Notes under the pieces: generated by a model | The model's input: the letters and a program-made list of their open reading frames with translations, nothing else | Databases searched by the model: none | Told to the model about the DNA's origin: nothing | Part shown: positions 8,892 to 43,817 of the stretch, piece after piece | Layout: every line of letters starts with the position of its first letter | How positions within the stretch are numbered: the stretch's first letter is position 1 | Translations under genes and position numbers: made by a program | DNA from: Hyaloperonospora brassicae | Taxonomy: Eukaryota > Oomycota > Peronosporomycetes > Peronosporales > Peronosporaceae | Assembly: GCA_947650285.1 (NCBI GenBank) | Contig: CANTFL010000136.1 | Location: 62,001 to 126,000, forward strand | Length of the DNA: 64,000 nucleotides | Direction of reading: 5' to 3'

Positions 8892-9337
8892 TGTAACGAG
8901 GCACGCCTTGTGTCCATTCGACACAAGGTTGTGTGTAACCGACGTCACGTACACGTGGCGTGAGGAAGCGCAGCGAAGTAGGCAGAGCTTGGAAGTTCTG
9001 TATAAGGGAAATTGTAGAACTGTATATAATATAGTTATGTTTCTTAATGACCATCTTTTGTCTTGAGCTAACTGTATTAAACTACAATATCCTATGCGGG
9101 TTTCTTGCTCACCACCGATTGCGCGCGTCCAGCAGCGATTGGTGGTTAATCTGGTTGATGTACCGTAAGCATCAACCATCAGGTGGAGCAACCCATCATA
9201 TAAATATTACCCTTGGGGGTAATATTGCTTCAACCTTACTCCTTACGATTAATGTCAGTTGAACATTATCTAAATAGATAATGTTCAAAAATTGGTTCAA
9301 AGATATCAATTTTATGTACCTGACTCACCCCGTTACC
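8892..9337 (-). repeat. LTR of element B (3' copy)
   Basis: TG start; the end is set by alignment with the other LTR, and the expected terminal a is a c here. From about 8940 to 9290 it is nearly identical to 16775-17130. The outer about 55 bp on each side is quite different in sequence, though it still contains hairpins (for example 8906-8928, 9-bp stem). The purine tract of the element (gggaggg on the minus strand) sits just inside, near 9337-9345. Confidence 0.8.
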
Positions 9338-9458
9338 CTCCCTTTAACCATCAGTCACAAAATTAAGTGTTTATATTGATTGGTAACAGAGTGATCACCG
9401 TTTGGTCGCTCTGTGGGAAAGGGAGCACTTGTTGGGTTTGACCAACTCATTCCAGCGC

Positions 9459-11248
9459 ATGAAGAGTTCGTACATGCGCTGCGCGAACATGACCGCCAGT
9501 AAAGCTTCTGCACGGATGCATGCAGCCGGAGAACAAGCTGTTCGAGACTCAGCAGCAGATGCCAAGTCACCTGCTACTGCCTGTAAGCAGTCTGCAACTC
9601 CCGTAGTTGCAGAAGCGCGTGTTCATCCACGTGCTGCTCCTTTTCATGCAGCTTCGGCTGCGGGAGGTAGTACCATATACCAAAATCCCGAAGTAGAGGT
9701 GGTCTTTTAGAGCAAGTCGGTCTCTCCGTCCGGTATCAAGCCGTCCGCAGCGCCCGACCGTCGGGTTGCGGAATTGACGACTGCTGCGCCTCGCGGCGGT
9801 CTCGATTAAGACTTGCGCCATGAAATGTTTGGTTGTTCCGACGAGTCTGTGAACTCGTCGCCGGTTTCGAAACGATTGCGCTCGTATTCGCACGTGGCGA
9901 GTGCGAAACATGATGATGTACGTCCTCATAACGGTGTCGATGACTATTTGCGGAGGCATCGTAGCCATAGCCGCAGCAACACTAGTTATTGCGGCGATCG
10001 TGGTGCTAGCTCTAATGTTGGCACCACACAAGAGGAGCCGTATCGTGACGCGTTGCGATCCTGCTCCTGAGAACAAGCCATGGATGCCCACCTTGAGCGA
10101 GTTGAGACAGTGGTATGGATATACCACTGAGATTTGTCAAACACCACTCTTTGACTCGTTAAGGATTCATGGACTGGATCCCAGTGCGATCCATTATCGC
10201 ACTGAGCATGAATTCTACATCGATGTCTTCTTTAGACATTGATGGTACCACGAAATCCGAAAGAGAGACGAGCTCTCTTTGGTGCAGGCGTGGAACTCGT
10301 TTATCGTTAACACTGAGAATATTTACCGCAAGGTTTGGCTGGACAATCTCGATGTTGCTCGCAATAGGTTTGAGCTGAAGTCTCATACCGGTTCTCCGTT
10401 TAAATTGCACCGATTATCTCCATAGGCAGGTTTACCTTGCTTCTCGTGGGGAAAGAAGTGCCAGAGTGGTGTTGACAACTCAGGTCGCGCCTCTAGGGAG
10501 GCGTACCTCTCTAATCAGTACTATTGGAGGGCGCAAATCTCGTCCGAGATGTACCAAGGGATTGAGACTTCGCAATGCCTTTACGAACGCGGCGGGGGCT
10601 CGTACGACGATGGCCCTCCATCGTAGGGTGTGTCTCGTCGTAGTTCTCGACGAGACCGGGCACGTCCAACATCAGATTAGAGCGGTATCTCAGCTGTTTC
10701 AAGAGGGCGGATACCCCCGCCACTGGACGAGGTAACTCGTTCTGATCCTAAGTTGTCACAGAGGTTCAAGATACGCTCGACAGTGAAGCGTTGACGACCT
10801 TTTAAGTCCACCAAAGGATGTGGAGGAATAGGATAAACCTCCTCCAAGTCGTTCGGCTCACCATTTCGACCAATACAAGATGGATCGCGCAATCGATCAA
10901 TTGCGCGAGGATATGGAGCACGAGCGAGATGGGCGTTACGCTCTGACCGACACTGTGCGACATCAACGCAAGGATCGCGAAGCCGATCGTGCGAAGGATA
11001 GTGCTGAGTACGCGGTCGAGCAACTTCAGGTTAAGCGTGATGTCCGTTCCCTCATTAACGATCTGGCGACATCTCGCAGAGAGATCTCTAAACTGCGTGG
11101 AGAGGTCTCTTCGTTACGCGTCCAGACTGATCTTCTGAAGCGCGAACGCAAGTGCCTAATGGAGGTTCTTGAACGTGGGGGTTATCTTCATCGTCGGAAG
11201 AGGACTCGTACTGACAGTACGGGCGGAGACGTCCCACGTAAAACGTAG
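9459..11248 (+). pseudogene. Antisense ORF relic of element B (aORF)
   Basis: Read opposite to the retrotransposon, between integrase and the 3' LTR. From the ATG at 9459 one frame runs to about 10070 with stops at 9708 and 9807. A second frame continues to about 10425 with a Trp/Tyr/Asn-rich, protein-like reading. Further blocks include an Arg/Ser-rich run (RRSSRRDRAR near 10640). The last block, 10880-11248, is an open 122-codon coiled coil (REISKLRGEVSSLRVQTDLL) ending in a basic tail. No homology recognised. Elements A and C have antisense ORFs in the same place. Confidence 0.45.
10511..10892 (-). pseudogene. Chromodomain of element B, degenerate
   Basis: Two overlapping frames carry the two ends of a chromodomain: GRQRFTVERIL near 10800 and VPGLVENYDETHP near 10680. 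The central WRGY-type segment is garbled by frameshifts. In chromoviruses this domain follows integrase and is thought to guide insertion towards particular chromatin. An antisense ORF lies on the opposite strand. Confidence 0.6.
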
Positions 11249-12943
11249 GATGCGTACGCATCCTGCGTGGCAGTTCGATCGTGTATGCGTTTCCTTGTCG
11301 GAGCAGCACACGAAAGGGAACGATGTACTTGGGCAGTAGTTTGCTGCTTCCCACGTTAGTTACTACATGTCTAGTTAAGTTTATCGTTTATAGTAGGACT
11401 AAGTCGCCTTCAATAAATAAAAGAACATTTGCTCTTCCATTCTTGTCGGGGTTCGATTTCTGCTAGTCCTCCGCGGGAGCGATGGAATCCTGCACGAAAC
11501 GGACCACTGCTTCGCGATCCAGCAGAAATCTTTCTGCTGATTTAGCCTTGTTGTGTTTAGTTCGCCTTGTGCGAACTGCAGAAAGAGTTCTTTCTTCTTT
11601 CTGTTCATCATCTTGGATGTCATCATCCTCGCTTGAACAGTCGTTGGCGATGCTGAAAATACCAGCATCGTCATCCTCATCTGTGTTAATAATAGCATCA
11701 TCGCTATTATTGAGGTGATCTTCTTCATCGATGTCGACTTGATCGACATCGGCATCGTACGTGCCGACGTTCGCGTCGACACGTGATGAGCAAGAGCTAG
11801 AACGGTTTGTTCCCGAGCGAGTCCCTCCCTTCCTAAACCAAGGGTCACACTCTAACATAGAGGGCTGACGTAGATGGCGTAAGCCATTCACGAACAATTG
11901 TGTGTGCTAAGTTGAAGAATGCACCGAATTATTGAAGGCGAATTCTGCGAGAGGTGAAAATTCGCTCCAACTCGAGAACGAGTGAACGGATCCGCGAAGG
12001 ATCTCGTCAAGGACGCGTTTGGCACGTTTCGTCTGACCATCGGTTTCGGGATGGCCAGATGTTGACACCTTCAACCGCGTTCCAATGGATCGGAACACGG
12101 ACTGCCAAAACTCCGCCGTGAACCTGGGATCACGGTCGGATACGAGTTCACGGGGTAACCCGTGAAGTCAAAGTATCGTGTCGATAAATACACGCGCACA
12201 TCCGTGTGCGCTGATCAACTTTGTAACTGCAGCAAGATGAACCATCTTGCTAAAACGGTCAACAAACACAATATTAACATTATTCTTGTGAGCTTCTTTG
12301 GGGAAACCGAAGACGAAGTCCATTGAAACGGACTGCCAGACTCTGCCGGGACAGGATGAGGCTGTAATGGTGCACGGGAAGAAGGACTGGGCTTCACCCG
12401 CTAACAACCCTCGCAATCTCGAATATACTTGCGGCACAACGGATACTGGCGTGGCCAGTAAACGTTGCGACTTACCTTGCGGTAAGTCGTTTCCCTTCCA
12501 CGATGCCCGCCTGTTGAGGCATCGTGACACTCATACAAGATGCGCAGGTACAAATTATTATGAGTAGGGACGGCGACATGAGACGTGTCGCCGGCAACGG
12601 CCGTATAGTACAGCAACATGTTGCGAGTTGTGTACCGATCCGAAGAGGGTTGGTAAAAAGCCGGTAAATCTTTCAAAGCTTTACGAGATGGATTTGCCAG
12701 ATGATCCATCAAGCGCAGAAGATCCTTGTCCTCTTCGTAGGCCTTTCTCAAGTCATCAAGTAATGTTGGCGACGGGAAACTGACCGTAAGTACAGCAACA
12801 TTGGGCTTGTTCCCACTGTTGGATTGCGCGCCTGGCTCTAAATCGGGTCGTCGCAATAGGGCGTCAAAGATGACATTCAGTCGTCCTGGTTTATACTCGA
12901 CGGAAAAGTTGTACTCCGCAAAGAAAGACAGCCACCCCGCCAT
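11088..12943 (-). pseudogene. Integrase of element B with an acidic insert, broken
   Basis: 12401-12943 holds the end of RNase H (FAEYNFSVEYKPGR) and the HHCC zinc domain (HDASTGGHRG, CRKYIRDCEGC). A shifted frame to 12168 gives the start of the catalytic core (SVSMDFVFGFPKE, VDRFSKMVHLA). 11907-12098 gives the end of the core (SGHPETDGQTKR). Then comes a run of about 100 Asp/Glu/Ser-rich codons (11463-11790), not usual for this family. The GPY/F-like module (KYIVPFRVLLRQGNAYTIEL, near 11330) follows and ends at 11088. At least four frame breaks. Confidence 0.75.
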
Positions 12944-12966
12944 TCGTTGGAAGACATGGGGACTGT

Positions 12967-14109
12967 TTACGGCGGTGCGTAGTGAACATGGTCCTTTTGG
13001 ACGATGAAAGGTCTATCTCCTAAGAGAGAGACGCGAAACTTGGCCATTGCGTACTTCATGGCAAGGATTTCCTTGTCATAGACTGAATAATTACGCTCAG
13101 CTGCTTGCAGCTGACGCGATTGATAGCAGATGACGCCTTCTGCACCATATGTGTCAAATTGCATCAGCGCACAGCCGATAGCAAAATCGCTGGCGTCACA
13201 GACCACATGAAATGGTCTGTCCTGATCTGCAATCGCCAAGATGGGCGATTGCATCAAGCTCCGCTTGATGGTTTCAAAGGAACGCTGGCACTCAGCGTTC
13301 CATGACCACTTGACATTTTTCTTGAGTAACCAAGAAAGATGCACAGTCATCTCGGCGTAGTTGCGCGAGTACTTGTGCAAGTACGCCGCTAGTCCAAGGA
13401 ACTTCCTTAGTCCCTTGACATCGACTGGCACAGACCAGTCGGTGATCGCCTTGATCTTTTCGGGATCAGGGCGTACGCCGTGTTTACCCACGATGCAACC
13501 AAGAAGTGGTATTTCGCTATCTGCGAATATACACTTCTTGAGGCTTGCGTACAACTTATGCGCAAGCATAAGTTGAAGAACCTGACGAACGTGAGTTCTG
13601 AGAACTTCAACGTCCGTCTTCACGTCCATAGCCCGACTATGGACGAACACATCGTCGATGTAACTCGGTGCAAAATCCCACACCGGTCTCAACAGATTTG
13701 TGACACATCTGTTGAAAGTAGCAGGGGCATTACTCAGCCCCTGTGACATCACTAGCCACTCCCACAACATACCGCTGGGGGTGCTCACTGCCGTGTACGG
13801 GATGTCCCGTTCACGCATGAGGATCTGATAGAATCCATCCATCAGATCCATGGAAGAAGAGATGGTACTCTTAGACATGTCATCTATGATCACGTCCTTC
13901 CTCAATATCGGTGTCTGAGCCGGTACCGTTGTAGCATTCAACTTGTTGAATGCGTGCACTATCCGCCATACTCCTGTGATCGTTCGCACACCGAAGGTCG
14001 GAGATCTGTGAGTAGAAGTTGATTCCCTCATATGGTCCGTTGCAAAGCGGTCTGCAAAGAGCCTGTCGATCTCTAGTACTTGTTCACGAGGCAGTGGCCA
14101 CTGCTTCAT
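12967..14109 (-). pseudogene. Reverse transcriptase and RNase H of element B
   Basis: One open frame of 380 codons covers nearly all of a Ty3 reverse transcriptase and the first part of RNase H. The catalytic box is SYIDDVFVHSR near 13650. [13 protein letters not shown] and LGLAAYLHKYSRNYAEM are the usual fingers/palm and connection signatures. RNase H begins [16 protein letters not shown] near 13190. The frame is lost at 12967, just before the end of RNase H. This is the best preserved block of the element and also the densest in stem-loops: I count 13 between 13090 and 14110. Confidence 0.85.
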
Positions 14110-14223
14110 GACACAGTACTTCGAGACCGGTTTGAGCTCGATCTAGTGTCGAGCGCCTTTGTCCTTAAGCAACTCGCAAAGTACGGGTTCAGGTAACACA
14201 TCCCTGAATTCGATCAAATCCTT

Positions 14224-15490
14224 TTACAAAGGATTTGCCTGAAGTGACTCCCAGGATTGAGAAGTGTATCGTTCAATCCAAGTCTTCTCATCGAGGACAC
14301 TTTCATTCATCGATGAGCTGCTGAGAACCCGTTCGTTCTCGGCAAATACCGTCGCCGACCGAATATCGGCCACATACTCATCCTCTGTGACGAGTATGAA
14401 GATTTGCTTGACTTTGCCACTGCGTAGATCACGCAAGAACCGTTTCGGTTCTAGCGTTGGCAATTGAGCCATCTCCGAAGTTAACTTCGGAGGCACAATC
14501 AGATCAAGCGTATAAGCGCCTACGCTTGATCCGTCATTAACCAAGACGTTCAACGTCTCGGTTACTTCCTGGGAACTTGTTTCCACAGGTTGCTGAAGGC
14601 CTAATCCTTCAGCAAGTGATTCTTGAGGAATTCCTTCCTCAAGTACGTGGGGACTTATTCCCTCGACGTCTTCCTGCTGTGGCTGTGCAACCGCAGTCAG
14701 GCACCGATCCTCTACGGTCGACTCTCCAGTCGACCTAGGATGTCCATGATGCCCTTTGAAGGCAACAGGTTTCTTTTGTCTAAGATGCTGCCCTCTAGGC
14801 ATGCATCCACGTCCCGGTCCACTCGACTTATTCGAGTGGTGGACCTTCGGCGCTGCCTGTACTTCTGTACAGCCGCCGGGAGCTTGCTCCACAGTGTAGT
14901 GATCAAATACACTGTGATCTTGTGCAGTCGTGCGAACGACCGTACCGCAAGTGAGGCCATCGCACTCACTCGCAGAACATCCAAACGCTCGTGGACGCTC
15001 CAAGATGTTCATCAGATGGCCATTTGATGAACAAGTGGCAGGAATCTTCACGGGTCGATGCTGCCAGCTCACCCTTGGCTCGTATATTCTGAGCCAAGAT
15101 AATCCCAAGATGACATCAAATTCGTCATCCAGATCCAGTACGATGAAGTCATCATCGTACTGTTCGCCCTCGAACGTGTAGTGGATTCCTACTACACGTT
15201 TTTCAACGGTAATCGATGCGCATGTAGCAAGACGCACCGTCATCCTCGTGAGAGGGTATGGCGCTCAACGAACTTGAGCCCAAGCTCCTCCAGTGACTGG
15301 CGACGAACAAAGTTGTTCGACGCTCCACAGTGAACCAGAGCACGAAGTGACACATTGTTTGTCACTTTTAACTTCAAAGGGATGAGTAATATCTCATCAC
15401 CAGGTGCAGAGACACACAGTGACTGTGTGTCTGGAGCAACTTTCGCAAGAGATTTGCAAATTCTCTTGAGGTTGCTGGATCAGTAGGACG
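14224..15490 (-). pseudogene. Protease and linker of element B, catalytic Asp lost
   Basis: Two overlapping frames read a retropepsin. The active-site motif is ALVHCGASNNF instead of the expected D-[ST/C]-G. The codon at 15330-15332 is CAC (His) where GAC (Asp) is expected, so the enzyme could not cut. A frame change near 15245 leads into the ORF 14224-15243, which reads the second half (VILGLSWLRIYEPRVSW) and then a long low-complexity linker towards reverse transcriptase. Confidence 0.75.
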
Positions 15491-15498
15491 CTCCGCCC

Positions 15499-16653
15499 CT
15501 ACTGACCCCGGCCATTTTTGGATGGTCCGCTCCGCTTTTGCGATTTCGCAACAGCGCTGGACCCACGCCCATTGCCCGTTTTGACAAATGGTCGTTTACT
15601 TCGCTCAGTACTGTTTGGTACTGGGCGTGGAGCACTACACTCGTAAGCGTAGTGTCCTAGCTTATGACAACGATTGCACTTTTGCAATCGCTTGTTGTTT
15701 GAAGAGAGAGGTCTCTCGCTCTCAACATAACAGAGTTCCATTGGTTCTGGACCTTTGGTCTCTTGTCGTCTCGGTGGACGATAAGATCTCGGTCTAGCAT
15801 GAGCGTGTCTCATGCTAAAGTCTTCCGGCTCCGCAGATACGATTGCGTGTTCCATCGTATCCAGCTATAGGCGGAACAGGGGATTCCTGACGGGCCCGTC
15901 TGCAAGCCCTTGTATGAACACAGTAATCAATGTGTGTTCATGAACTGGGTTAGCAGTTAAACTACTCGCGAGTAGTCGTATATGCTGAGCGTATGCGTGC
16001 ATATCGCACTTACCTTGTTTGAATTTCAGTAGCTCAGAACGAGCCCTGAACTCAGCCCGAGGCGGTTCAAACGTTTGTTTGAGCCGAATGTTGAAGGTTT
16101 CTAGCAAACCGAAAGCATATGGGTCGCTCATCTCGAGCCCTAAGGCCCAAGTCTTGGCACTTCCTGCCAAGTGGGTTTGAACAAATGTTAGTTTCATTTG
16201 ATCATCGTCGATGCGACGTGCCTTTATGGCTCTGTCTATTTCGACGAACCCCAATAACACGGAGTATTCCTCGACTCATCTGTACTTGGAGATATCAATC
16301 TTCAAGATTTCGGGACGACGCGTGTGTGTCGTTTCACCCACCGCAGCATTGAATTGCTGCTGTCTCAACAGCTCTGTCTGTTGAGCACCGGGTTCTCTAA
16401 ACTGCTCATCCTGTTTTGAGCCTTGCTGTTGAAGCAAGGCTACTTTCTTTCATTTGGTATCAAGTCCATGTTGAATGAAGCTGGCGATGACGACAAATTT
16501 TTGGTCTCTGTCAAGAGATTCTAACATAAGGGTTACGCCAATGTCGCCCACGGTATATCTCATTCGCCCTACCGCGGCCCATTCGAGGTCACTAAAATGG
16601 GCGAAGCCTTCACGTGTGGAGTAATATCTCTCTTGCTCATCCCTCATGTTCAT
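15499..16653 (-). pseudogene. Gag of element B with three in-frame stops
   Basis: A single frame of 385 codons from the ATG at 16653 to a stop at 15499. It is interrupted by stops at 16450-16452, 16278-16280 and 15865-15867 but by no frameshift. It reads a Ty3-type capsid (LTFVQTHLAGSAKTWAL near 16170) and one zinc knuckle (CNRCHKLGHYAYEC near 15660). The start follows the primer site by about 30 nt, as usual. Confidence 0.8.
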
Positions 16654-16685
16654 GTCGGATGAGGTGATTGTGGTCGCTGGATGGA

Positions 16686-16701
16686 CTACGAAGTGCTACC
16701 A
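16686..16701 (-). promoter_or_regulatory. Primer-binding site of element B
   Basis: On the minus strand the sequence TGGTAGCACTTCGTAG starts two bases after the 5' LTR. It begins with the TGG that pairs with a tRNA CCA end. The same 16-mer is the primer site of element C (39251-39266), and element A has a one-base-shorter version, so the three families prime from the same tRNA. I cannot name that tRNA from the sequence alone. Confidence 0.8.
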
Positions 16702-16703
16702 GG

Positions 16704-17176
16704 TGTAACGGGGCACGCTCTTGCTCAGATAACTGAGCAAGGCCATGTATTGATAACAATACAAGTGTGCGTACGCCCGACGTCACGTATACGTGGCGTG
16801 AGGAAGCGCAGCGAAGTAGGCAGAGCTTGGAAGTTCTGTATAAGGGAAATTGTAGAACTGTATATGATATAGTTATGTTTCTTAATGACCATCTTTTGTC
16901 TTGAGCTAACTGTATTAAACCACAATCTCCTATGCGGGTTTCTTGCTCACCACCGATTGCGCGCGTCCAGCAGCGATTGGTGGTTAATCTGGTTGATGTA
17001 CCGTAAGCATCAACCATCAGGTGGAGCAACCCATCATAGAAATATTACCCTTGGGGGTAATATTGCTTCAACCTTACTCCTTACGATTAATGTCAATTGA
17101 ACATTATCTAAATAGATAATATTCAAAGATTGGTACTTTCGTACCAATTTTTATGTAACGGGCTCACCCCGTGACA
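16704..17176 (-). repeat. LTR of element B (5' copy)
   Basis: Runs from TG at 16704 to CA at 17175-17176. It is 27 bp longer than the 3' copy. Its outer part holds two tandem hairpins with the same ATAA loop (16720-16741, 9-bp stem; 16746-16763, 7-bp stem). The other LTR has one unrelated hairpin there. The central about 350 bp are nearly identical in both. Confidence 0.85.
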
Positions 17177-22550: not shown

Positions 22551-22591
22551 TTGTCGTGTTGCCCAGTGTGCAGCACTGGGCAACACGACAA
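22551..22591. repeat. Perfect 18-bp inverted repeat with a 5-nt loop
   Basis: Arms 22551-22568 and 22574-22591 are exact reverse complements (ttgtcgtgttgcccagtg) around the loop tgcag. It is much longer than the stem-loops of the Ty3 elements and stands alone in unique sequence. Confidence 0.85.
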
Positions 22592-24409: not shown

Positions 24410-24986
24410 TATAGCGGAGCTACACAGCTCCTTAAGTCAGAAAAAGACTTTACGCTCAATGAGCAACTTCGGTTCAAAGAACCCGACCCAGAGAGTCAAC
24501 AGCTCAGAGAGCTTAAAGGGTGGTTCAGAGAACCCGACTCAGAGAGTCAACAGCTCAGAGAGCTTAAAGGGTGGTTCAGAGAACCCGACTCAGAGAGTCA
24601 ACAGCTCAGAGAGCTTACGGTCCCCGTTCCAGAGGGACCAAACGATTCAAATGAATCACAGCACAGAGTGCTCGAGGACAAGCTACCTTTACAGGCGTTG
24701 CTTCTGTCCTCCCGATCAAAGACGCCTCGTAAGGCACGTGTCTTATGTTGATCAAAATGGGAACTGAATTTTATTTCTTCATTTAACCTAAAAGAACACC
24801 TTAGAACAAAGTATTTAACCTGCCCTAAATAACCTCTTAAAAGATCTTGCAATCAATTGATGACAGACACCAGTCTTCAACAATTGATACGCTCACTGTG
24901 TTCTAATATTACCTTATAGGATACCCCCCTCTCTTGTGTGCACCACACCTATCGTCGGCTACCAGCCAACGTGTAACCCCGTTACA
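24410..24986 (-). repeat. LTR of element A (3' copy), with an array of micro-hairpins
   Basis: 577 bp. The part nearest 24410 is a chain of short hairpins: ggagc/gctcc, aagtc/gactt, gctc/gagc, then repeated triplets with 5-bp stems and mostly AGA loops. The triplets lie in a 51-bp unit repeated about three times (24471-24617). Each unit has ggttc-gaacc, gactc-gagtc and agctc-gagct stems. In the sense direction this is the U5 end, so it would sit in the 5' leader of the genomic RNA. Confidence 0.9.
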
Positions 24987-25093
24987 CCCTCCCCCACCAG
25001 ACTGACGTTACCACAAAACGTCAATCGAACTTTTCCTCGAAGAGGACGGTGTGTGTGCGCTCTAACCTCACGGTTTGCAAAGCACGAAACACC

Positions 25094-26545
25094 ATGGCAT
25101 CGCCACCTAACGAGTCCCCGACTCTCTCTTCTTACCTCGGCATTAATGTGGAGGAGGACTATGGTAGTGATACCGATGTCCGTGGTGAAGAACGGACAAT
25201 GTCCAACTCACCAGTGCAAGAGGCATCGCCTCATACTGCACCAAACCCATTTGCCGAGCGTAGTGAGACCACCGCGTTAGAAACGCTGCATCATGCAACA
25301 GATCCAGGTGAACACATCATCACCAACCCGCTCGATGAGCAACAAGAGTTGGTAATCCAACAAGAGGAGAGCGCTCAGCGCCGTATGCAGCTTGCTGCAG
25401 GCCTTTAGGGTCGTCGTGGCTATCAGTTCACGCCACTCAATGTGGAAGAGCGTAAACGCCAAACGACAGGTCGTTCCCTGGCAACGTGGGCCATTGGCGC
25501 TGAGCCTACATCTTCTGATGAAGTGGCGAGCCGACAGGCACTTCGTGAGAGGTACCTGCAACCCCACTTGACGACTCTAAGTCAATACAAGTTGCGACTT
25601 GACACGCAAGCACGGGGTGCACCGCTGCCACCGATGAGGGGTATACCCATCCTCTTATTCGCAGGCGAATCTCCGGAGGAGGAGGACAACACTTTTGTGC
25701 GCTGGGTGCACCGGAAACGTCACCTCATCAGCATGCTAGCTCTCAGAGCAAGTGCCAATGTGGCAGATGTTCGTCTAGAACGAAAGCTTCGGTATGACTA
25801 TGCCAAGCTTAAGGCCAGAGGCCAATTGCGATTTCGCACCCGCTATGCTCCGGCTGTGCCGATGGAAGTGGGAGTTGGTCAAGCGGCACCCAACTACCCA
25901 CCTGCTTCCACCACTATTGGTGGGAAGCGATATCGGTCGAAGGATGATCCCTGCCACGATGTTCAAAAACATCAACGGCGTACGGGCAATCCTGCCGAAG
26001 GGGTACCTCAAATTCCCACGAGTTCTCCGACTCCGGGTACCCTCGCCACTTTACCAGATACTGGTATTGACCCTGACGACGACGTCGTTTCAGGAGTCGT
26101 TCCACATGGAACTGGCGGTTCCCTTGCTCATCGAGCAGCGTCGGAGGTGGTCGGTATACCGAAGGAGGAGCACGAGAAGGTGCTTCTCGAGCTGAGTGGT
26201 CTCCGTGAGACGTTGGGTCAGACCCAGAGTGCGTTCGACGCAATGCGAGCCCGTGTTCGGGCGTTGGAGTTGGGCCAAGCCCGGATGGAGGCTCAGCTTG
26301 ACCTCCTGATACGGATTCAGCAACCGATGGCAAAGCCAACCTACCCGGCGCAAGCGCCTCCAAGTTCACGTGGGACGGATCTGATACGGCTGAAGCATGC
26401 CAACGTAGAACACGGGGTGTGTGCGCAGTTTGCGCGGAAGGTTGAGCGTATACGCAAGTCCCTTCTTGGCGACGACCGTAAAGGGTCCAATGAAGCGCGG
26501 GCGCAACTTCGTCTTGAAGACGGCGGATACTACATTTGTAGGTAA
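25094..26545 (+). CDS. Antisense ORF of element A (aORF), one stop
   Basis: A 484-codon frame on the strand opposite to the retrotransposon, from ATG 25094 to TAA 26543-26545, with a single TAG at 25406-25408. The first third is acidic and Ser/Pro-rich (SYLGINVEEDYGSDTDV). The middle is basic and globular-looking (FVRWVHRKRHLISML). Residues about 355-410 form a coiled coil (EEHEKVLLELSGLRETLGQ), followed by a basic end overlapping the integrase tail. Between 25094 and 25910 there is no sense ORF to explain the open frame. The 3' LTR lies upstream of the start and could act as promoter. Function unknown. Confidence 0.6.
25914..26369 (-). pseudogene. Chromodomain of element A, out of frame with integrase
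   Basis: A 151-codon frame carrying a Pro/Ser-rich linker and then a clear chromodomain: RQFHVERLLKRRRRQG, LVKWRGYPESENSWE and a C-terminal helix. It starts where the integrase ORF stops, one frame away, so a single frameshift near 26368 separates them. The aromatic cage positions of the fold are partly kept (F, W). It is fully overlapped by the antisense ORF. Confidence 0.8.
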
Positions 26546-27958
26546 GTTTTTAGCATTGAGTAGAACTTGGTCTCCGACCTTATAACGTTCAATAAAACCT
26601 CTGCCTTTGGCATCTGCTTGTTCCTTCTGCTTATCTTGGCTATCAGCCAGTGCGTCACGCACATGTCGTGAGATATTCAATTGCGTTGCGAGAAACTCGC
26701 TTACCTGTTTTTGAACAGTAGCACGGATGATATCAGCAAGCCGATCGGCAACTCCTCCCCCACCAAGCCCTGAACTACGTAGTGGTAGCGTTAACGGAAC
26801 GCGAGGGTGTGTGAGACCGTTCACGTAGAACGGGGTAAAGCCGGTGGAGGCATGCACAGCGTTATTCAACGCAAACTCAACGACAGGGAGCATCGAGATC
26901 CAACGCCTAGGTGTTTCAGCGCAAACACTGCGCAAGATGTCACCAATGACACGATTAACGCGCTCCGTTTGACCATCGGTCTGCGGATGATCCGCTGTGG
27001 ACATGTCCAAACGTGTGCCGAGCACCTTGAAGATGGAATTCCAAAACTTACCAGTGAAGCGAGAATCTCTATCAGAGACAATTGCCAACGGCAGACCGTT
27101 TTGTCGAAACACGCGATCGATAAACAGCGTCGCTGTACCTTCACCATCAATGGTGTCTGGCACCGCCTCTAAACGAGCCATCTTGCTCAAACGGTCAGCA
27201 AAGACCACAATACCCGTATTTCCATACGAATCCGTCGGTAAACCGAACAGGAAGTCCATACTGATGGACTCCCAACACCCTTTGGGTATAGGCAAACTAG
27301 CCAGCGGCGCTGCCTCATGTGGTGAGGGTTTCACCCGTTGGCACGTTTCACACGTACGTACATAGGTGCTCACCCATTTGTATAGTTTGGGCCACCAATA
27401 GAATTGGCTCACAGAGCCGTAGGTCTTTTCACGACCGAGATGACCACTCAACGCAGTATCATGTGCCTCATAGAGGATCCGATACTTCAACTCCTCATCA
27501 TGAGGGACAACGATGCGAGGGGTATCCTCCACATCCGTGCTATAGCACAACAGGCCTTGATCGATGGAATATCGATGTAACCTCGCACGTAACCGTGCCG
27601 ACAATTTTATGTCCGAGTCTTTAAACTCCTCGCTCCCTAGAGCACGTAGCAGGGCTACACAATGTTCATCCTTGACATATTCCGTGCGGATTAGGTCAGT
27701 GACCGGTGACGACAGAGTCGTAACATGAGCAAGCTCATAGTCAGGCCTGCGTGACAACGCATCCGCCAAAGCATTTTGCTTGCCCGGCTTATACTTCACC
27801 TCGAAGTTGTACTCGGCAAAGAAGGAAAGCCAACGAGCGATTCTCTGAGAGAGGGGAAGCGACGGGGTCGCAGTGCGTAGTGACGCATGATCTGTATAGG
27901 TCACAAACGGCTTAGATCCAGGAAGATAAACTATGAATTTGACGAGAGCATACTTCAT
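26366..27958 (-). pseudogene. RNase H end and integrase of element A
   Basis: A long open frame of 530 codons. It begins in RNase H (TDHASLRTATPSLPLSQRI), then reads the HHCC domain (HDTALSGHLGREKT, CETCQRVKP). The catalytic core follows (SISMDFLFGLPTD, FADRLSKMARLEAV, SDRDSRFTGKFW and a DHPQTDGQTERVNR end containing the Glu-bearing region), and then the GPY/F module (RPRFIGPFTVVAKKGLAYTLNL). The integrase itself looks intact. It lacks a start of its own and would need the upstream frame, which is broken. Confidence 0.85.
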
Positions 27959-28074
27959 TGCAAGTAGCTCTTTGTCATGAACGGGATAGTTCTTTTCTGC
28001 AGCCTTCAGCTGCCTGGACTCAAACGCAATGACGCGTTCTCGTCAATTAGAATCTGTCTGTAATAGGGCTATGC

Positions 28075-29760
28075 CTATGGCAAAGTCAGATGCGTCACAT
28101 ACGACACGGAAATATCGATCAGGATCAGGCAAAGCCAATATGGGCGCATGAAGGAGACTCTCCTTGACTGCTTGAAAAGCATCATGTTCGGTGCTAGTCC
28201 AGCACCATTCCACAACTTATTAAGGAGATTGGATATTGGCCGAGCCATATCTGCGTAATTCGCACTGTACTTGTGCAAGTAATTGGCAAGGCTAAGCCAC
28301 TTACGTAAGTCCTTTTGACTCTTTGTAATTGGCCAATCGACTATGGCTTTTACCTTGGCGGGATCCGCTCGAAAGCCTCGCTTACCAATAAAGCACCCTA
28401 AAAAGGGAATCTCTTCTGCACCAAAGATGCACTTAGACGCGTTGGCGTACATCTTATTCGTTCGCATGCACTCGAGCACCACTCGTAAATGGTCGATATA
28501 TTTATCCACATCGGACCGACCGTTCATAGCACGTCTAGGGACAAAGATGTCATCAAAGTATGTCTGTGCATAACCTCTGTGAGGTCTGAACAATTGTGTC
28601 ACAAGACGATTGAATGTAGCCGGGGCATTTGATAACCCTTGCGGCATAACGAGCCACTCCCAGACCATACCACTTGGAGTGCTGGCCGCTGTCAGCGGAA
28701 TATCGCTTTCTCGCATGAGAAGCTGGTAATAACCATCGACCAAGTCGAGCGCACTGTAAATTGTACATCCCACCATATTGTTCTGAAGAACATCCTTCCT
28801 CGGAATTGGTGTCTGAGCCGGGATGGTGGCCGCATTAAGCTTATTGTAAGCATGAACAATGCGCCACTTCCCATTGGGATTTTTGACACAGAAGGTCGGT
28901 GTGGAATGGGGAGATTTGCTCCCACGAACCATCCCCGCCGCGTGCTTTGCACGAAAGAAGTCGTCTATGACGTCACACTGTTCCTTGGGCAAAGGCCACT
29001 GCCGTGTTACGCAGTATTTAGTTCCAGGAACCAAGTCAATTTCATGACGTACACCTCTATGGGGAGGTAATACAGACGGTGAGTCGTGACACACCACGTC
29101 TTGAAATTCCTTTACCAAAGGATAAAACAGATCAAGAAAATCCTTAAGGATCGAGGATCCACTACGGGCATCCAATGCCGCCTTTGTGTCCTCAAGGACA
29201 GACTCGTCCAATAACGAGGATGAGTTCAACTCAATATCAGGCCGAATGACCACTAACTCGGAGAATTCTCCTGCCTGCAAGGCTTGGCTAAATTCGCCGT
29301 CAGACATCTCGTCTAGCTCAAAGATTTTATCCACGGATGGAAGAGTCTCAAGACTAATATTGCCATCGATCTGGCCAGTCAATCCATTGACAAGTGTATA
29401 CAGTGTATTATTACTATTATCACTTCGTGACTTCTTAAACGTTGGGCGCTTAACAGTCACCACCCTACGCTTCGATTGTTTCCTCAAAGAAACCTTACGC
29501 CTCTTAGAGGCCGGGACAGCAAAGTCCCCGTGGTTGCTATTCATCTTAGCACGCTCTATACGAGAGCTCATGTCTTGAGCGACATCTGGTGAAGTGTTAC
29601 GTAACTCGAACACTTCACCCAGTCGATTTACACGTACCACTTCACGTACATTATTCGGGCCTAGCCCTAAACACTCTGGCTTCTCGCCAACAATGTCATT
29701 ACCGACATTCAGTGAGGTGCCACCTCGGCCGCCCTCACTCTGTGTAATTTCACGTGCCAC
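28075..29760 (-). pseudogene. Reverse transcriptase of element A
   Basis: 561 codons with a basic nuclear-signal-like linker ([15 protein letters not shown]) at residues about 85-100, followed by reverse transcriptase. [34 protein letters not shown] and the catalytic [11 protein letters not shown] are all in place. The frame is lost near 28230, inside the tether before RNase H. The RNase H start is read in another frame and has a TGA near 28044. The upstream join to protease is broken by a 1-bp loss in the second copy of a 120-bp duplication. Confidence 0.85.
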
Positions 29761-29892
29761 CGCACTTATAGCATTAGGGTCTAGCCCTGAACACTCTGGC
29801 TTCTCGCCATCAATGTCATTACCGACATTCAGTGAGGTGCCACCTCGGCCGTCCTCACTCTGTGATTTTCACGTGCCACCGCACTTACATCA
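29653..29892. repeat. 120-bp tandem duplication with a 1-bp deletion
   Basis: Two copies exactly 120 bp apart (compare 29701-29750 with 29821-29870). The unit is a multiple of three, but one copy reads tgtgtaatttcacg and the other tgtgattttcacg, one base shorter. That single base puts protease and reverse transcriptase in different frames. The duplication lies in the variable linker of pol. Confidence 0.85.
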
Positions 29893-30746
29893 GAGGAATT
29901 ACATTCTTGATGTTTCGGCCCTAGGCCAACCATGCTTGACGCATGCAGTGACTCAGTATCACAACGAGTATCACTCAACGGATTATAACTCTCTCCAAAC
30001 GCGTTAGAAGAGCTCCGCTCAATATTTATGTCATCGACATTCGAGCTAAATAACTCTGACATACCAATGTCCAGCACATTGACATCTTCCGTCAATGGCT
30101 CGCGCCAATAGCGCTTTTGTTGCCTAGCAAAGGTGGGTTCATGACTCTCCAAAGCTTCGCTGGGAACATTGCGCGTGGCGCCTAAGGTCTTAGTCCTCCA
30201 ATCAATCCATGGCTCATGGCGTTCAAGCCAAGCCATACCCAGGATGAGATCATATCTCGAATCCAAATCGAGGACGAGACAACGTTCAATGCTGTCAAAG
30301 TCCAAAAACTTCACACCTAAGTTCAACGGAACTTTAGGCACCGTGACGCGACTACCAGTCGCTAAACGAACGGTGATCGAATCACCTTCGTGCGCTTTGA
30401 GCGCTTCAGCGTATCGCTGACTTCCCTCAAGGGAACGACGTCGAGCATAGTTACATGATGCTCCTGAATCGATTAAAATCGACCACGGCTTCTCAAAGCC
30501 TTTTACTGTCGCCTCGGCGACTAACAAGCCAGGATTGTATCCACGCTCTGTGATGGCTGGCACAGCGCTAAGTGGGGCTAAGCCCTGTTTCACTTTATCT
30601 CGTAGAGATGTGACAGAACTTAGTTCTACCCCAGTAGGCCGCCCCGCGCCTACTGGGTGTCGACGTTTCCCCGTGCCATACCAGGTTTCTGGTTGAGGCT
30701 GGGGTTTCGACTCATAGGAGTCGGTTGTTGCTTTCGCAAAGGACAA
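29829..30746 (-). CDS. Protease frame of element A
   Basis: 305 codons overlapping the end of gag by 97 bp in the -1 frame, which suggests a -1 ribosomal frameshift in the overlap. The shared family motif PVGAGRPTG is near residue 31. The retropepsin active site [11 protein letters not shown] is near residue 91, and the second conserved segment [17 protein letters not shown] is near residue 170. The C-terminal third is a low-complexity linker. The ORF ends early because of the 1-bp loss in the 120-bp duplication. Confidence 0.8.
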
Positions 30747-31684
30747 GTGGGACGCAAGTGTTTAGTGCTTCCGCACATGTAACAGCGTCTCACATCCTGT
30801 CGTTGCTCCGCAACATGAAGCTCCGCTTTGCCTTCATCTTCAGCATGGCTGAGATCCATCGGTTCTGGCTTACAGTAAGCCGAAGTCCTCGCAGAGGCCG
30901 CCCTCGCAAAGCTTGGGTTGTACCCATTCCAACCAAGTCTGGCCGACTTGAAGTTGTGCTCAGCATTTTGAGCGACGCGCACAGCTTCCTCAAAAGTAGA
31001 GGGATGAACCCGAAAAACCTCGGTTCTGGCCACGCCAGTGCGGAGACCTTCCATGAAGACTGTCACGTAGACAGTCTCAGGGAGAGGGTCAGACTGCATA
31101 GCAGCCATTAGATTTCTCAACTCTTGGACATAGTCCGTTAACTCGCTCTTACCCTGACGGGTTGATAAGAAGCGTGATCGCACGCGATATGCCTGGTTAG
31201 GCGGCGAGAAAACTCGCATGAGGTCTAACTTGAGCGATTCCCACGTGGGAAATGCCAAATTGACCGACGTGCCACACGTCAAAGCCCACTCTTTAGCTCT
31301 ACCATCGAGCTTGGAGATAGCCAAAGAGACCCGTTGGTTCTCTAGTGAGATGAGACCAGAGTCCATGGCCATCTCAATCTCACGGATCCAGAGGGTCAAG
31401 TTTTCCCCCTCCTTCCCGGAGTAACATTTAAAGTCCACCCGAAGGGGACGAGGCTTAGCCTCTTCTGGTGGCATAGCCACGTAGCGTGTCGGCATAGCCG
31501 ACGCTACTTGGTTTTGAACCTGACCCAACAGAGCCGTTTCATACTGCATAAAGGCCTCGACTCGTGCATTGAGCACATCGGGACCCTGTGCAGCTAGAAA
31601 CTTTACATACTCTAGGCCTACGGCCGCGGTCAGCTTATCAAGCGCGACCTTTTGAGCCTCAGAGAGGGGTGTGGATTGCTCCAT
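30650..31684 (-). CDS. Gag of element A, intact
   Basis: 344 residues from an ATG 42 nt after the primer site. Residues about 80-265 are a Ty3 capsid domain (FKCYSGKEGENLTLWIREIE, LDGRAKEWAL). One zinc knuckle, [14 protein letters not shown], lies near residue 304 and has the normal CX2CX4HX4C spacing. The C-terminal tail is basic. This is the only retrotransposon gene in the window that looks complete and functional, so the copy could still supply Gag or be mobilised in trans. Confidence 0.88.
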   Translation of the reverse strand: MEQSTPLSEAQKVALDKLTAAVGLEYVKFLAAQGPDVLNARVEAFMQYETALLGQVQNQVASAMPTRYVAMPPEEAKPRPLRVDFKCYSGKEGENLTLWIREIEMAMDSGLISLENQRVSLAISKLDGRAKEWALTCGTSVNLAFPTWESLKLDLMRVFSPPNQAYRVRSRFLSTRQGKSELTDYVQELRNLMAAMQSDPLPETVYVTVFMEGLRTGVARTEVFRVHPSTFEEAVRVAQNAEHNFKSARLGWNGYNPSFARAASARTSAYCKPEPMDLSHAEDEGKAELHVAEQRQDVRRCYMCGSTKHLRPTCPLRKQQPTPMSRNPSLNQKPGMARGNVDTQ

Positions 31685-31726
31685 CCTCGCAGAGGATCAG
31701 TCGTTACCGACTCAGGTGTAGATTGA

Positions 31727-31741
31727 CTACAAGTGCTACCA
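31727..31741 (-). promoter_or_regulatory. Primer-binding site of element A
   Basis: TGGTAGCACTTGTAG on the minus strand, two bases after the 5' LTR; it is one base shorter than the site of elements B and C. Confidence 0.75.
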
Positions 31742-31743
31742 AG

Positions 31744-32320
31744 TATAGCGGAGCTACACAGCTCCTTAAGTCAGAAAAAGACTTTACGCTCAATGAGCAA
31801 CTTCGGTTCAAAGAACCCGACCCAGAGAGTCAACAGCTCAGAGAGCTTAAAGGGTGGTTCAGAGAACCCGACTCAGAGAGTCAACAGCTCAGAGAGCTTA
31901 AAGGGTGGTTCAGAGAACCCGACTCAGAGAGTCAACAGCTCAGAGAGCTTACGGTCCCCGTTCCTGAGGGACCAAACGATTCAAATGAATCACAGCACAG
32001 AGTGCTCGAGGACAAGCTACCTTTACAGGCGTTGCTTCTGTCCTCCCGATCAAAGACGCCTCGTAAGGCACGTGTCTTATGTTGATCAAAATGGGAACTG
32101 AATTTTATTTCTTCATTTAACCTAAAAGAACACCTTAGAACAAAGTATTTAACCTGCCCTAAATAACCTCTTAAAAGATCTTGCAATCAATTGATGACAG
32201 ACACCAGTCTTCAACAATTGATACGCTCACTGTGTTCTAATATTACCTTATAGGATACCCCCCTCTCGTGTGTGCACCACACCTATCGTCGGCTACCAGC
32301 CAACGTGTAACCCCGTTACA
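31744..32320 (-). repeat. LTR of element A (5' copy)
   Basis: 577 bp, matching 24410-24986 with only two differences that I can find. The 51-bp hairpin units are at 31805-31951. The flanking duplication aggtc follows at 32321-32325. Confidence 0.92.
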
Positions 32321-38928: not shown

Positions 38929-39248
38929 TGTAACGGGGCAACCCATTACATTAAGTAGTCATAGTTTTATTACATAATTACATACATTAAGTGTAGACAG
39001 TATCCGGATAGCGGATACTGCGCGTCTATTTATTATTGGTTTATTTTTGGGGTGCCAGACCCAATAATTAGCCAATAATAATTAGTTCTGTATTTGAGTG
39101 GTTCCCATGAGCTAGGGAACATATTCGCACTTACTGCGAATTATAAAAACACAAAAATACAAACAGAGTTGAATTTACCTTAAAAATCACAGCGCTTCCT
39201 CAGCTTAATTATTAGTGTAAGACGGTAACGGGCACTCACCCCGTTACA
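38929..39248 (+). repeat. Left LTR of element C
   Basis: TGTAAC...GTTACA ends. It contains several hairpins, for example around 38998-39020 (cagtatccg/cggatactg), a gttccc/gggaac stem near 39100, ttcgca/tgcgaa near 39130, and gtaacggg/cccgttac at the 3' end. Confidence 0.9.
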
Positions 39249-39250
39249 CC

Positions 39251-39266
39251 TGGTAGCACTTCGTAG
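39251..39266 (+). promoter_or_regulatory. Primer-binding site of element C
   Basis: TGGTAGCACTTCGTAG, two bases after the LTR, identical to the site of element B. Confidence 0.8.
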
Positions 39267-39274
39267 TCCTTCCC

Positions 39275-40339
39275 ATGACCAAGTTCGAGATGGATATGAG
39301 TGAATCTTCGATGGCTCCAGCAGTTTCGCTGGAGCATGCAGATTTTCCCCATCTCACTACGGTAAAATGGCAGGCATTACACCGCCTCGCGGCGGTGTCT
39401 TGGGAAATCTTCGTGACGTCGCTGCTAAGCACAGCGACGCCCGAACAACACCGTGCCGCCATTCAAGACTACATGGTGCGCGAGCTCGCCGAAGCGAACC
39501 GGCGAGTACATACTCTCTCGCGCCCCTCCCATTACGATGCAATTAAAATGGAGACGTCGACATACTCTGGTGATGGTCCAGATCGTCTCCCCCTTAATCG
39601 CTGGTTTAGGGAGATTGATATCGCCATAGCGTCAAGTTTGATTGACGCTCCTACGGCCAAGGTTAATTTTTTACTGTCTCGGCTTGTTGGTAAAGCCAAA
39701 GAATGGGCTCTTGGGAAGCTCGTTGTAGACGAGTTGGCATTCCCCACGCTGGACGATATCCAGCGCGACTTACGACTGGCGTTCGAGCCCCCTCAAGATG
39801 AGTCACGCTTGCGCGCAGATTTCTTTTCACTTTGACAGGGCAAGCTGTCGATACGTGATTACGTACAGAAGACGCGACATCTTGCTTCGTGTATCATCAC
39901 TCAGCCGATCGACATGGCTTCGCAAGTTCATGTCTTTGTCTTTGGTATGCAAGAGGGCATGACCCGCCATTGCCTCACACGTGCTGAACCTAAGACTCTT
40001 GAGGAGGCATTCGCCCTCGCGCTTCGTGAAGATTACACGGTCGCATCGTCATATTTGCAGGCAGCGTCGCAACGCCCGCGTACGTCTGGCCCAGAGCCTA
40101 TGTAAATTGACGTTATCGATGCATCTCGTGGTCGCGACAAGCAATTTGGCCGCGACATTCGAAGTCAAAACACGATGAAGTGTTATCGGTGCGGCAAGAC
40201 TGGCCATCGTGCGGCCGTCTGCCGAGCACCAGCGCCGGTGTCCATGAACACAGCTGTCCCACGTGGAGATACTGTGTCGTCATGGTCACGCCAAAAAACG
40301 AGCGGTTCCAGTAGGTGCGGGGCGCCCTACTGGCAGTAA
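39275..40339 (+). pseudogene. Gag of element C with two stops
   Basis: One 355-codon frame from ATG 39275 to TAA 40337-40339, broken by TGA 39833-39835 and TAA 40103-40105. It reads a Ty3 capsid ([33 protein letters not shown]) and a normal zinc knuckle, CYRCGKTGHRAAVC, near 40180. It overlaps the pol frame by 77 bp in the +1 frame, whereas element A uses -1, so the frame relation differs between families or has drifted. Confidence 0.85.
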
Positions 40340-42656: not shown

Positions 42657-43817
42657 ACGAAGAACTATGCAGAACTAATCCAGCTACTATCGACCCTACT
42701 GAAGAAAGACGCAGTTTGGTCATGGAAAGCTGAACATCACTCTGCCTTCAACTCTGTGAAAAAGAGCTTGTCTGAAGCACCAGTGCTGATGTTACCTGAT
42801 GATTCCAAGCCATTTCACGTCGTCTGTGATGCGAGTAATTTCTCTATTGGATGTGCCCTCATGCAGTTTGACGATGAGGGCCGAGAGCGCGTCGTGAGCT
42901 TTCAGTCACGACAGATGAAACCCGCAGAGAGGAACTATCCGGCACATGACAAGGAACTTTTGGCTATGCGTTACGCGCTGATCAAGTTCAGAGTATATAT
43001 GCTCGGCGAGAAGATGTTTTCGGTCTATACAGATCACGCATCATTGCGTACCGCCGTCAAAACTCCCCACTTGTTTCAGCGTATGGCACGTTGGTTATCA
43101 TACTTCTCAGAGTATAATTTCGTGGTCTTTTACAAACCCGGCAAGAACAACATTCTTGCTGACGCGCTTTCTCGACGTCCCGATTATGATCCTCGACGTG
43201 ACATGGGTCATCAGCCAGGCATTGCTGAAGACGAGGACGACGACATTTGTTTATGCTGTGCTGAGCAGGGGCTCAATGCAATGATTTCGACACCTGAGCT
43301 GTCAATCCGGACTCAAATCGCTGAGTCATATGCGAACGATTCATTCTACACGGGAATCATCAATTATCTTCGACAACCTATTGAGGGTTCACTCGCGAAG
43401 TTGACGAAACCAACGCGTGACAACATCAAGCGGTACGCGCTTGATGGTCCGCTGCTGACTTATACAATGGACGTTTTCGACCCACCGCGCGTCGTCATCC
43501 CTGCTGATGACGACCTCCGCGCACGATTGGTGCATGAATTTCATGACACTCCAACTGGTGGTCATTTGGGTCGCGAGAAGACGTTCGCGGCCATCTCTCG
43601 TGTGTTTTTCTGGCCGCGTATGTACAAATACATCCAGAAATGGGTACGCTCTTGTGAAATATGTCAGCGTGTGAAGCCTGCGCCGTCTTCACAAGCTCCA
43701 TTGCGTCCGCTTCCGATTGCCACGGAAGCCTGGCGTTCGGTCAGCATATATTTTAACCTTGGTCTCCCTCCGGACGAACAGAAACGCACGGGCGTATTGG
43801 TTTTGTGGATCCATTAA
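42657..43817 (+). pseudogene. RNase H and N-terminal integrase of element C
   Basis: Same frame as the preceding segment, after the TAA. RNase H reads VCDASNFSIGCALMQF, ERNYPAHDKELLAMRYAL and YTDHASLRTAV, with its acidic residues present. Integrase begins with an HHCC domain (HDTPTGGHLGREKTF, CEICQRVKP) and the start of the catalytic core (WRSVSIYFNLGLP, where family members have D in place of Y in MDF). A frameshift near 43800 ends the frame. Confidence 0.82.

What the first reader, a model, noticed from the sequence alone, without database searches (positions are those of the whole stretch)
9400..16690. A retrotransposon saturated with short perfect stem-loops (element B)
Through gag, pol and the non-coding end, element B carries perfect inverted repeats with 7-10 bp stems and loops of 0-10 nt, often back to back. 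In 13090-14110, inside reverse transcriptase, I count 13: 13097-13114, 13198-13220, 13228-13253 (10-bp stem), 13252-13270, 13279-13301, 13369-13384, 13422-13441, 13552-13575 (10-bp), 13623-13645, 13689-13715, 13722-13743, 13934-13953 and 14091-14104. Others include 12231-12251, 12468-12489, 11688-11711, 11729-11751, 14591-14614, 14622-14643, 10108-10129, 10182-10204, 10632-10656 and 9591-9613. With equal base frequencies, a 7-bp stem with a loop of 3-8 should occur about once per 2.7 kb (6 x 4^-7). The host genes at 54-64 kb do not show this. Protein motifs are kept, so the stems must use synonymous freedom. Possible causes: selection for a highly folded genomic RNA, or template switching of reverse transcriptase that converts imperfect palindromes into perfect ones. 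Either would be new for this group as far as I know.
Basis: partly seen in the sequence, partly recalled or inferred. Interest (0 to 1): 0.9.

Follow-up and report, generated by a model that had tools for sequence, protein, structure and literature searches.

The report
Jumping gene built from tiny hairpins
A family of mobile elements in what looks like a water-mould genome has nearly its whole sequence, genes included, written as a chain of tiny self-pairing hairpins that evolution appears to keep intact, which suggests that folding itself, and not only the proteins encoded, helps these elements survive.

Summary
All 23 listed stems exist. Element B, LTR to LTR, holds 75 perfect hairpins (stem >=7, loop <=10) against 4.8 in dinucleotide shuffles. 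Codon-preserving shuffles do not reproduce it: pol of copy L026 has 69 against a mean of 3.5, maximum 9. B is an ageing copy; 18 of 19 other fetched copies carry more, 106-131 per 7.8 kb against 70. Folding energy exceeds shuffles by 49% in L026; a virus survey gives 23% as its record. The trait marks one Ty3/gypsy clade (B, C, D, L041 families), each with its own hairpin size, and is missing or weak in another Ty3 lineage, LINE-type elements, two Copia copies and host DNA. Inherited variants avoid stems, single-copy variants hardly do: pairing looks selected in the active lineage. One-armed clusters expected of template switching are not in excess. G-U mismatches are no commoner than A-C, so both strands seem to matter. 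Best reading: selected, strand-symmetric local folding, resembling viral GORS but stronger; the benefit (shielding from small-RNA silencing, or a role in reverse transcription) is inferred.

The parts
8923..9333 (-). LTR of element B at its 3' end in sense orientation, with hairpins at 9152-9178, 9203-9226 and 9259-9288 (14-bp stem)
   Evidence: BLAST of the two ends: 8939-9333 against 16777-17172, 95.2% over 396 nt; ungapped repeat from 8923; hairpins
16761..17172 (-). LTR of element B at its 5' end in sense orientation, with hairpins at 16990-17016, 17041-17064, 17103-17120 and 17129-17148
9334..16776 (-). internal part of element B (broken gag-pol and non-coding 3' part), filled with perfect hairpins
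   Evidence: 75 hairpins over 8939-17172; MFED 27.7% for 9334-16776
14224..15243 (-). ORF of 339 aa with weak retroviral aspartyl protease match (RVP_2); 13 hairpins
   Evidence: Pfam; hairpins and codon shuffles
12967..14109 (-). ORF of 380 aa: reverse transcriptase and RNase H; 14 hairpins
   Evidence: Pfam; hairpins and codon shuffles
12401..12943 (-). ORF of 180 aa with integrase zinc-binding domain (H2C2)
   Evidence: Pfam
38929..46671 (+). element D, a recent LTR element of the same clade (LTRs 38929-39247 and 46353-46671, 99.4%); 39 hairpins of stem >=7
   Evidence: MFED 7.6%; Pfam
24410..32320 (-). element C, a recent LTR element of the same clade (LTRs 24410-24986 and 31744-32320, 99.7%) with many small hairpins of 4-6 bp
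   Evidence: MFED 15.5%; Pfam

Best explanation
Element B is a decaying copy of a high-copy Ty3/gypsy LTR retrotransposon (chromodomain seen in relative L026) whose LTRs, gag, pol and 3' non-coding part are written as a chain of short local hairpins. Shown by computation: the excess over dinucleotide and codon shuffles; its presence in the sampled families of one clade, each with its own hairpin size; fewer inherited variants in stems than elsewhere, without a comparable deficit of single-copy variants; compensated pairs; no preference for G-U over A-C. Inferred: natural selection during the element's life cycle keeps its single strands, the RNA and its complement, locally folded; hairpins were gained by point changes in both arms using codon freedom, and their positions turn over between families. 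Inferred and less certain (about 0.3 on its own): self-folded strands resist forming, or being matched by, intermolecular duplexes (antisense transcripts, small RNAs), a cis-acting, sequence-independent shield against silencing, similar in kind to the shielding proposed for GORS of RNA viruses.
For: Shuffle tests. 18 of 19 other fetched copies carry more hairpins than B. Variants among 16 near copies with L026's own hairpins as mask: singletons 0.084 per stem site against 0.091 outside hairpins, shared variants 0.031 against 0.078 (loops 0.112), Fisher p = 2e-8, the same with five other copies as mask; compensated 12 of 64 shared against 3 of 176 singleton stem variants, p = 1.3e-5. Clade distribution. 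Both arms changed in gained hairpins. Folding gain equal on both strands and G-T 16, A-C 19 among shared stem variants. AT-rich stems are longer in 5 of 7 sequences tested and C's loop-closing pairs are biased (91 of 120), which points to stability. C-family copies show lower stem divergence in 11 of 11 directed comparisons. Small RNAs of 21 and 25/26 nt come mostly from LTR elements in Phytophthora infestans, and map in both orientations along its two commonest Gypsy elements (PMC3522703, passages).
Against: Other intact retroelements of the same genome (LINE-type, L037/L040, Copia) have little or none of it, so it is not needed for survival in this host. Folded regions of maize transposons map to more small RNAs, not fewer (PMC10760457, abstract). 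No expression, small-RNA or probing data were available. Perfect stems are strand-symmetric by nature, so the two-strand claim rests on few mismatches (16 and 19). Loops of B are A-rich on the sense strand only, a hint of sense-strand selection. GC and stem length are not significantly related in L013 and L041. In the C family the lower stem divergence is modest (0.45 to 0.93 of the rest). D and L041 show a loop-closing bias opposite to that of C.
Confidence: 0.6

Rival explanations
1. Mutational origin: the element's reverse transcriptase folds the nascent strand back and copies one arm from the other, so that imperfect palindromes become perfect without selection for folding.
For: Such template switching is a known source of perfect stems in replicated DNA (PMC8794818, abstract and passages). 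It explains Watson-Crick perfection, equal G-U and A-C, restriction to retroelements of one RT clade and a family-specific size.
Against: Multi-base differences between lineages are not concentrated in one arm, and in gained hairpins the two arms changed about as evenly as in randomly placed ones. Correction should turn about half of stem mutations into compensated pairs; L026 against L018 shows 2 compensated and 28 single changes in 1,159 aligned pairs, although non-hairpin sites differ by 4.5%.
Confidence: 0.13
2. Selection for folding, but for a step of the element's own cycle and not for defence: hairpins compact or protect the packaged RNA and the minus-strand DNA, limit strand transfer between co-packaged genomes, or bind Gag.
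For: In reverse transcription the RNA and then the minus strand are single-stranded, which would make both strands count, as the mismatch data suggest. Family-specific hairpin size suits a family's own Gag or RT. A clade-limited trait suits an element-intrinsic role.
Against: No shared loop or stem motif was seen in the listing of L026 hairpins, and loops of 4 nt are nearly all different; related families of the clade manage with far fewer hairpins (MFED 6-15% against 49%).
Confidence: 0.25
3. Stems mutate less than other sites (mutational cold spots), with no selection.
For: Inherited variants are depleted in stems.
Against: Single-copy variants are nearly as frequent in stems (0.084) as outside hairpins (0.091); a cold spot would not create the excess over codon shuffles nor compensated pairs. 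A cold spot acting only during reverse transcription is not excluded by the singletons.
Confidence: 0.02
4. Chance, base composition, codon usage or an assembly artefact.
For: None found.
Against: Dinucleotide and codon shuffles; the same hairpins recur in copies on different contigs, up to 1.7 Mb long.
Confidence: 0.005

Closest known systems
[quoted passage not shown]
   Same: Many consecutive stem-loops through coding and non-coding parts, MFED far above the 3% threshold, paired sites less variable, positions poorly conserved between relatives.
   Different: An LTR retrotransposon, not an RNA virus; MFED 49% against a reported maximum of 23.4%; discrete perfect hairpins of family-specific size; no preference for G-U over A-C.
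Hairpins made or repaired by template switching (PMC8794818, abstract and passages); quasi-palindrome mutation in yeast (PMC3820800, search listing only)
   Same: Perfect Watson-Crick stems and compensated changes.
   Different: No excess of one-armed multi-base changes, and few compensated changes.
Ty3/gypsy LTR retrotransposons with chromodomain (chromoviruses; name recalled)
   Same: Domain order and LTRs.
   Different: No hairpin saturation is known to me in that group; the searches (listings only, open-access library) showed none.
miRNA-like secondary structures in maize transposons (PMC10760457, abstract)
   Same: Local folding in transposon sequence.
   Different: There pre-miRNA-like regions, which map to more small RNAs; here short stems of about 8-12 bp along nearly the whole element.

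Membership tests
GORS | MFED above about 3% (threshold in PMC3950689) | tested here: met
   B 27.7%, L026 49.3%, L013 47.2%, C 15.5, L042 14.7, L041 12.6, D 7.6, L038 6.1. Among controls L040 4.0 +- 2.2 and Copia L050 3.2 +- 2.3 also pass the bare threshold; L037, two LINE-type, Copia L049 and host do not.
GORS | Structure spread over the whole genome, coding parts included | tested here: met
   12.8-18.9 hairpins per kb in the five regions of L026 examined; gaps between hairpins fold too.
GORS | Paired sites less variable than unpaired | tested here: met
   weaker in C family
GORS | Positions of pairing poorly conserved between relatives | tested here: met
   B shares 1 of 43 hairpins with L041 and 2 of 41 with L038; L038 and L041 share 5 of 14.
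GORS | Genome of a positive-strand RNA virus | tested here: not met
   LTR retrotransposon by domains and LTRs: it works like GORS, it is not filed as a member.
GORS | Shields the RNA from host recognition | not testable with these tools
   needs small-RNA, expression or reporter data
Ty3/gypsy LTR retrotransposon | gag and PR-RT-RH-IN order | tested here: met
   L026: Retrotrans_gag; RVP_2 86-188, RVT_1 540-705, RNase H 769-899, integrase 1017-1186; chromodomain and SH3 in the third ORF. Zinc-knuckle matches are below their cut-offs. In B itself the frames are broken.
Ty3/gypsy LTR retrotransposon | LTR pair with target-site duplication | tested here: inconclusive
   LTR pairs in B, C and D; AGGTC on both sides of C; none recognisable at the BLAST-defined ends of B.
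Template-switch hairpins | Multi-base changes confined to one arm | tested here: not met

The most novel reading that the evidence does not exclude
A retrotransposon clade has evolved a sequence-independent, both-strand self-folding code: each family keeps its strands in hairpins of a characteristic span (mostly 20-28 nt, peak 23, in B; 11-14 nt, peak 13, in C), in B close to the 21 and 25/26 nt small RNAs of a related oomycete (PMC3522703, passages), so that neither the transcript, nor its antisense, nor a small RNA cut from either can easily pair with a partner: a cis-acting anti-silencing armour written through its own genes.
Probability: 0.2. Interest if true: 0.93.

Novelty: new variant of a known kind. 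Interest (0 to 1): 0.8.

Why it matters
Genome-wide ordered structure has been argued over in RNA viruses, where the survey read here gives MFED values up to 23%. Here a cellular mobile element reaches about 49% with discrete, countable hairpins; many genomic copies (40 and 108 matches in two capped searches) separate inherited from single-copy mutation; and related families range from 6% to 49% beside unstructured elements in the same cell. That makes the open question of why genomes evolve pervasive folding directly testable, by small-RNA mapping and structure probing in one organism. It also shows protein-coding sequence under a second, dense constraint.

Tried and rejected
Chance, composition and codon bias: rejected by shuffles. 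Sense-RNA-only selection: not supported, G-U is not favoured over A-C (pairwise counts go either way), the folding gain is equal on both strands, and GNRA tetraloops are no clear sense-strand feature (2 sense and 2 antisense of 20 in L026, 4 and 2 of 25 in L013). One-arm template switching. Conserved position-specific signals: hairpins are mostly not at homologous places between families. Hairpins as insertions: indels overlapped 0 to 3 hairpins per lineage comparison. Extension to Copia: two copies fetched of 151 matches; L050 shows 11 against 2.1, but 5 of the 11 are a tandem TGACGTCA repeat and its MFED is 3.2 +- 2.3%. Rfam at gathering threshold: no match. IMG/VR scan for relatives: 2 pattern matches, neither a relative. 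Post-insertion decay as the only reason for B's lower count: an LTR-based estimate predicts about 100 surviving hairpins where 70 are seen, so decay explains about half of the shortfall from about 129. Literature searches (listings only, up to 15 papers shown each) showed no report of hairpin-saturated retrotransposons.

No probability was raised on recheck.
Full report
What was checked. In the window, stems of at least 9 bp with loops of 0-10 number 58 against 1.4 in dinucleotide shuffles; 50 of the 58 lie in two LTR elements, B (37, minus strand) and D (13, plus strand). Between the LTRs of B there are 75 hairpins of stem at least 7 against 4.8 in 200 shuffles, maximum 11. Host DNA at 46.7-64 kb shows 9 against 10.6.

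What B is. Pfam places the pieces of B in a Ty3/gypsy pol; a complete relative (L026) has gag, protease, RT, RNase H, integrase and a chromodomain. The genome behind the window is 100.6 Mb in 898 contigs. Of 1,317 related RT proteins 120 were listed, and those that show an organism are all oomycete (Phytophthora, Peronospora, Pythium, Globisporangium, Aphanomyces), so the host is probably an oomycete; its name was not given. Two capped searches of the genome listed 40 and 108 matches of this family. B's LTRs differ at 18 of 396 aligned places plus a gap and its frames are broken, so it is an old copy.

Other copies have more hairpins. Of the 20 copies fetched, including B itself as L011, B has 70 hairpins in the 7.8-kb frame used, its near-twin L012 has 68, and the other 18 have 106-131; up to 38% of bases lie in perfect hairpins of stem at least 7. 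In L026, stems peak at 8-10 bp and loops at 4-5 nt, and the total span lies mostly between 20 and 28 nt, most often 23 (27 seen, 0.3 expected) and 24 (18 seen, 0.2 expected). Pairing just beyond the stems is near chance (0.14-0.34 at +2 to +7 in L026).

The excess is not a codon effect. In the 1,339-aa pol ORF of L026, 69 hairpins stand against a codon-shuffle mean of 3.5 and maximum of 9 in 200; at stem at least 9, 37 against 0.37, maximum 3. The phase in which third codon positions would pair with each other is rare (7 against 25 and 23), as expected if synonymous freedom is being used.

Extent of folding. Against dinucleotide shuffles, 200-nt pieces of L026 fold 28 kcal/mol better on the sense strand and 27 on the antisense strand; L013 26 and 24; host 0.8 and 1.5. 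Twenty-four gaps of at least 60 nt without a perfect hairpin still fold 24 kcal/mol per 200 nt better than shuffles, equally on both strands. MFED in 350-nt pieces is 49.3% for L026, 47.2% for L013 and 27.7% for B. The survey in PMC7642675 gives 23.4% as the highest recorded in vertebrate RNA viruses and about 15% for SARS-CoV-2 (abstract and passages); its shuffling program differs from mine.

Which elements have it. Twelve retroelement loci were fetched from 150 scored RVT_1 matches. Excess hairpins of stem at least 7 occur in L041 (26 against 2.4) and L038 (14 against 2.1), not in LINE-type L031-L036 and L039, nor in Ty3 L037 and L040 (the LINE-type label rests on the long RVT_1 span and was not tested further). 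C and L042 have a different style: stems of 4-6 bp, loop peak 3, span peak 13 nt (50 against 4.8 in C, 30 against 3.3 in L042), with stems of 7 or more near chance; for stem at least 5, L042 has 84 against a codon-shuffle mean of 21.9, maximum 31. One control, LINE-type L036, also exceeded its codon-shuffle maximum for these small hairpins (36 against 20.4, maximum 30), although its MFED is 0.8%. B, C/L042, D/L038 and L041 are 47-67% identical to each other in pol (D and L038 91%, C and L042 94%), and 23-28% to L037/L040. Two Copia copies of 151 matches were fetched; their MFED is 0 and 3.2%. So among the elements sampled the trait marks one clade, with family-specific hairpin size and strength. 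Hairpins of different families are mostly not at homologous places: B shares 1 of 43 with L041 (0.5 expected) and 2 of 41 with L038 (0.3 expected), L038 and L041 share 5 of 14 (0.23 expected). One hairpin shared by B and L038 has a base pair changed on both sides.

Selection or mutation. The main test uses 16 near relatives. Variants seen in one copy should mostly have arisen after insertion; variants shared by copies have passed through the active lineage (inference). With the hairpins of L026 as mask, singletons hit stems and non-hairpin sites almost alike (0.084 and 0.091 per site; loops 0.131), but shared variants avoid stems (0.031 against 0.078; loops 0.112; Fisher p = 2e-8). Five further copies used as mask give the same. 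Compensated changes make up 12 of 64 shared and 3 of 176 singleton stem variants (p = 1.3e-5). In the C family, 11 of 11 directed comparisons give stem divergence below non-hairpin divergence, by factors of 0.45 to 0.93: the same direction, weaker. One-arm clusters, the mark of template switching, are not in excess within family B nor between families, and compensated changes are few for a correction process. AT-rich stems tend to be longer in 5 of 7 sequences (not significant in L013 and L041, and L026 and L029 are relatives), and the small hairpins of C prefer a pyrimidine on the 5' side of the loop-closing pair (91 of 120, p = 7e-9), both of which point to stability as the selected property. 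L041 and D show the opposite closing preference (3 of 24, 8 of 35), which I cannot explain.

Which strand. Perfect stems serve both strands; mismatches tell them apart. Among shared stem variants G-T is 16 and A-C 19, among singletons 44 and 44. If only the sense RNA mattered, G-U should be favoured; a 2:1 ratio is rejected at p = 0.009. One sense-specific hint remains: loops of B copies are A-rich (0.34 against 0.25 outside hairpins in L026), though not those of D or C.

Interpretation. Selection for dense local folding of both strands in the active element fits best. What the folding is for is inferred. Shielding from small-RNA silencing is attractive because the majority of small RNAs in Phytophthora infestans come from LTR retrotransposons, with 21 and 25/26 nt classes, and map in sense and antisense along its two commonest Gypsy elements (PMC3522703, passages), and because both strands must be folded to keep duplexes from forming. 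Against it, other intact elements of this genome do without, and folded regions of maize transposons map to more small RNAs (PMC10760457, abstract). A role in reverse transcription, where RNA and minus-strand DNA are single-stranded in turn, would also give strand symmetry. Small-RNA mapping would decide.

Relation to known kinds. It works like GORS of RNA viruses, at about twice the largest value in the survey read, in an LTR retrotransposon, with perfect hairpins of family-specific size and no sign of a favoured strand. I rate it a new variant of a known kind. That no earlier report was seen is limited to the searches named (listings only).

Noticed in passing
24410-32320 (element C), L042-L048: C and its relatives are filled with much smaller hairpins (4-6 bp, 3-nt loop peak, about 13 nt in all) that a stem >=7 scan misses; loop-closing pairs are strongly biased to a 5' pyrimidine.
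   Followed up: yes
22551-22591: One perfect 18-bp hairpin with a 5-nt loop outside B, C and D.
   Followed up: no
40945-41274: Array of 33/66-nt repeats inside the long ORF of element D.
   Followed up: no
29615-29854: 120-nt tandem duplication (85%) inside the pol region of element C.
   Followed up: no
1201-1547 and 6039-6346: Direct repeats about 4.8 kb apart (87-94%), perhaps the ends of a further element; two 9-bp hairpins at 1365-1385 and 1613-1637.
   Followed up: no
289-359, 24751-24821, 32085-32155: A 71-nt stretch of C's LTR recurs at 89% at 289-359, perhaps a solo or truncated LTR.
   Followed up: no
18444-19460: ORF joining an F-box-like and a cytochrome b5-like domain.
   Followed up: no
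L050:538-611 in locus orientation (reverse of 3125-3198 on the Copia sense strand): Tandem array of the perfect palindrome TGACGTCA beside a Copia ORF.
   Followed up: partly
L041 and element D: Hairpins there favour a 5' purine at the loop-closing pair and G-C at the outer end, opposite to C; no explanation.
   Followed up: partly
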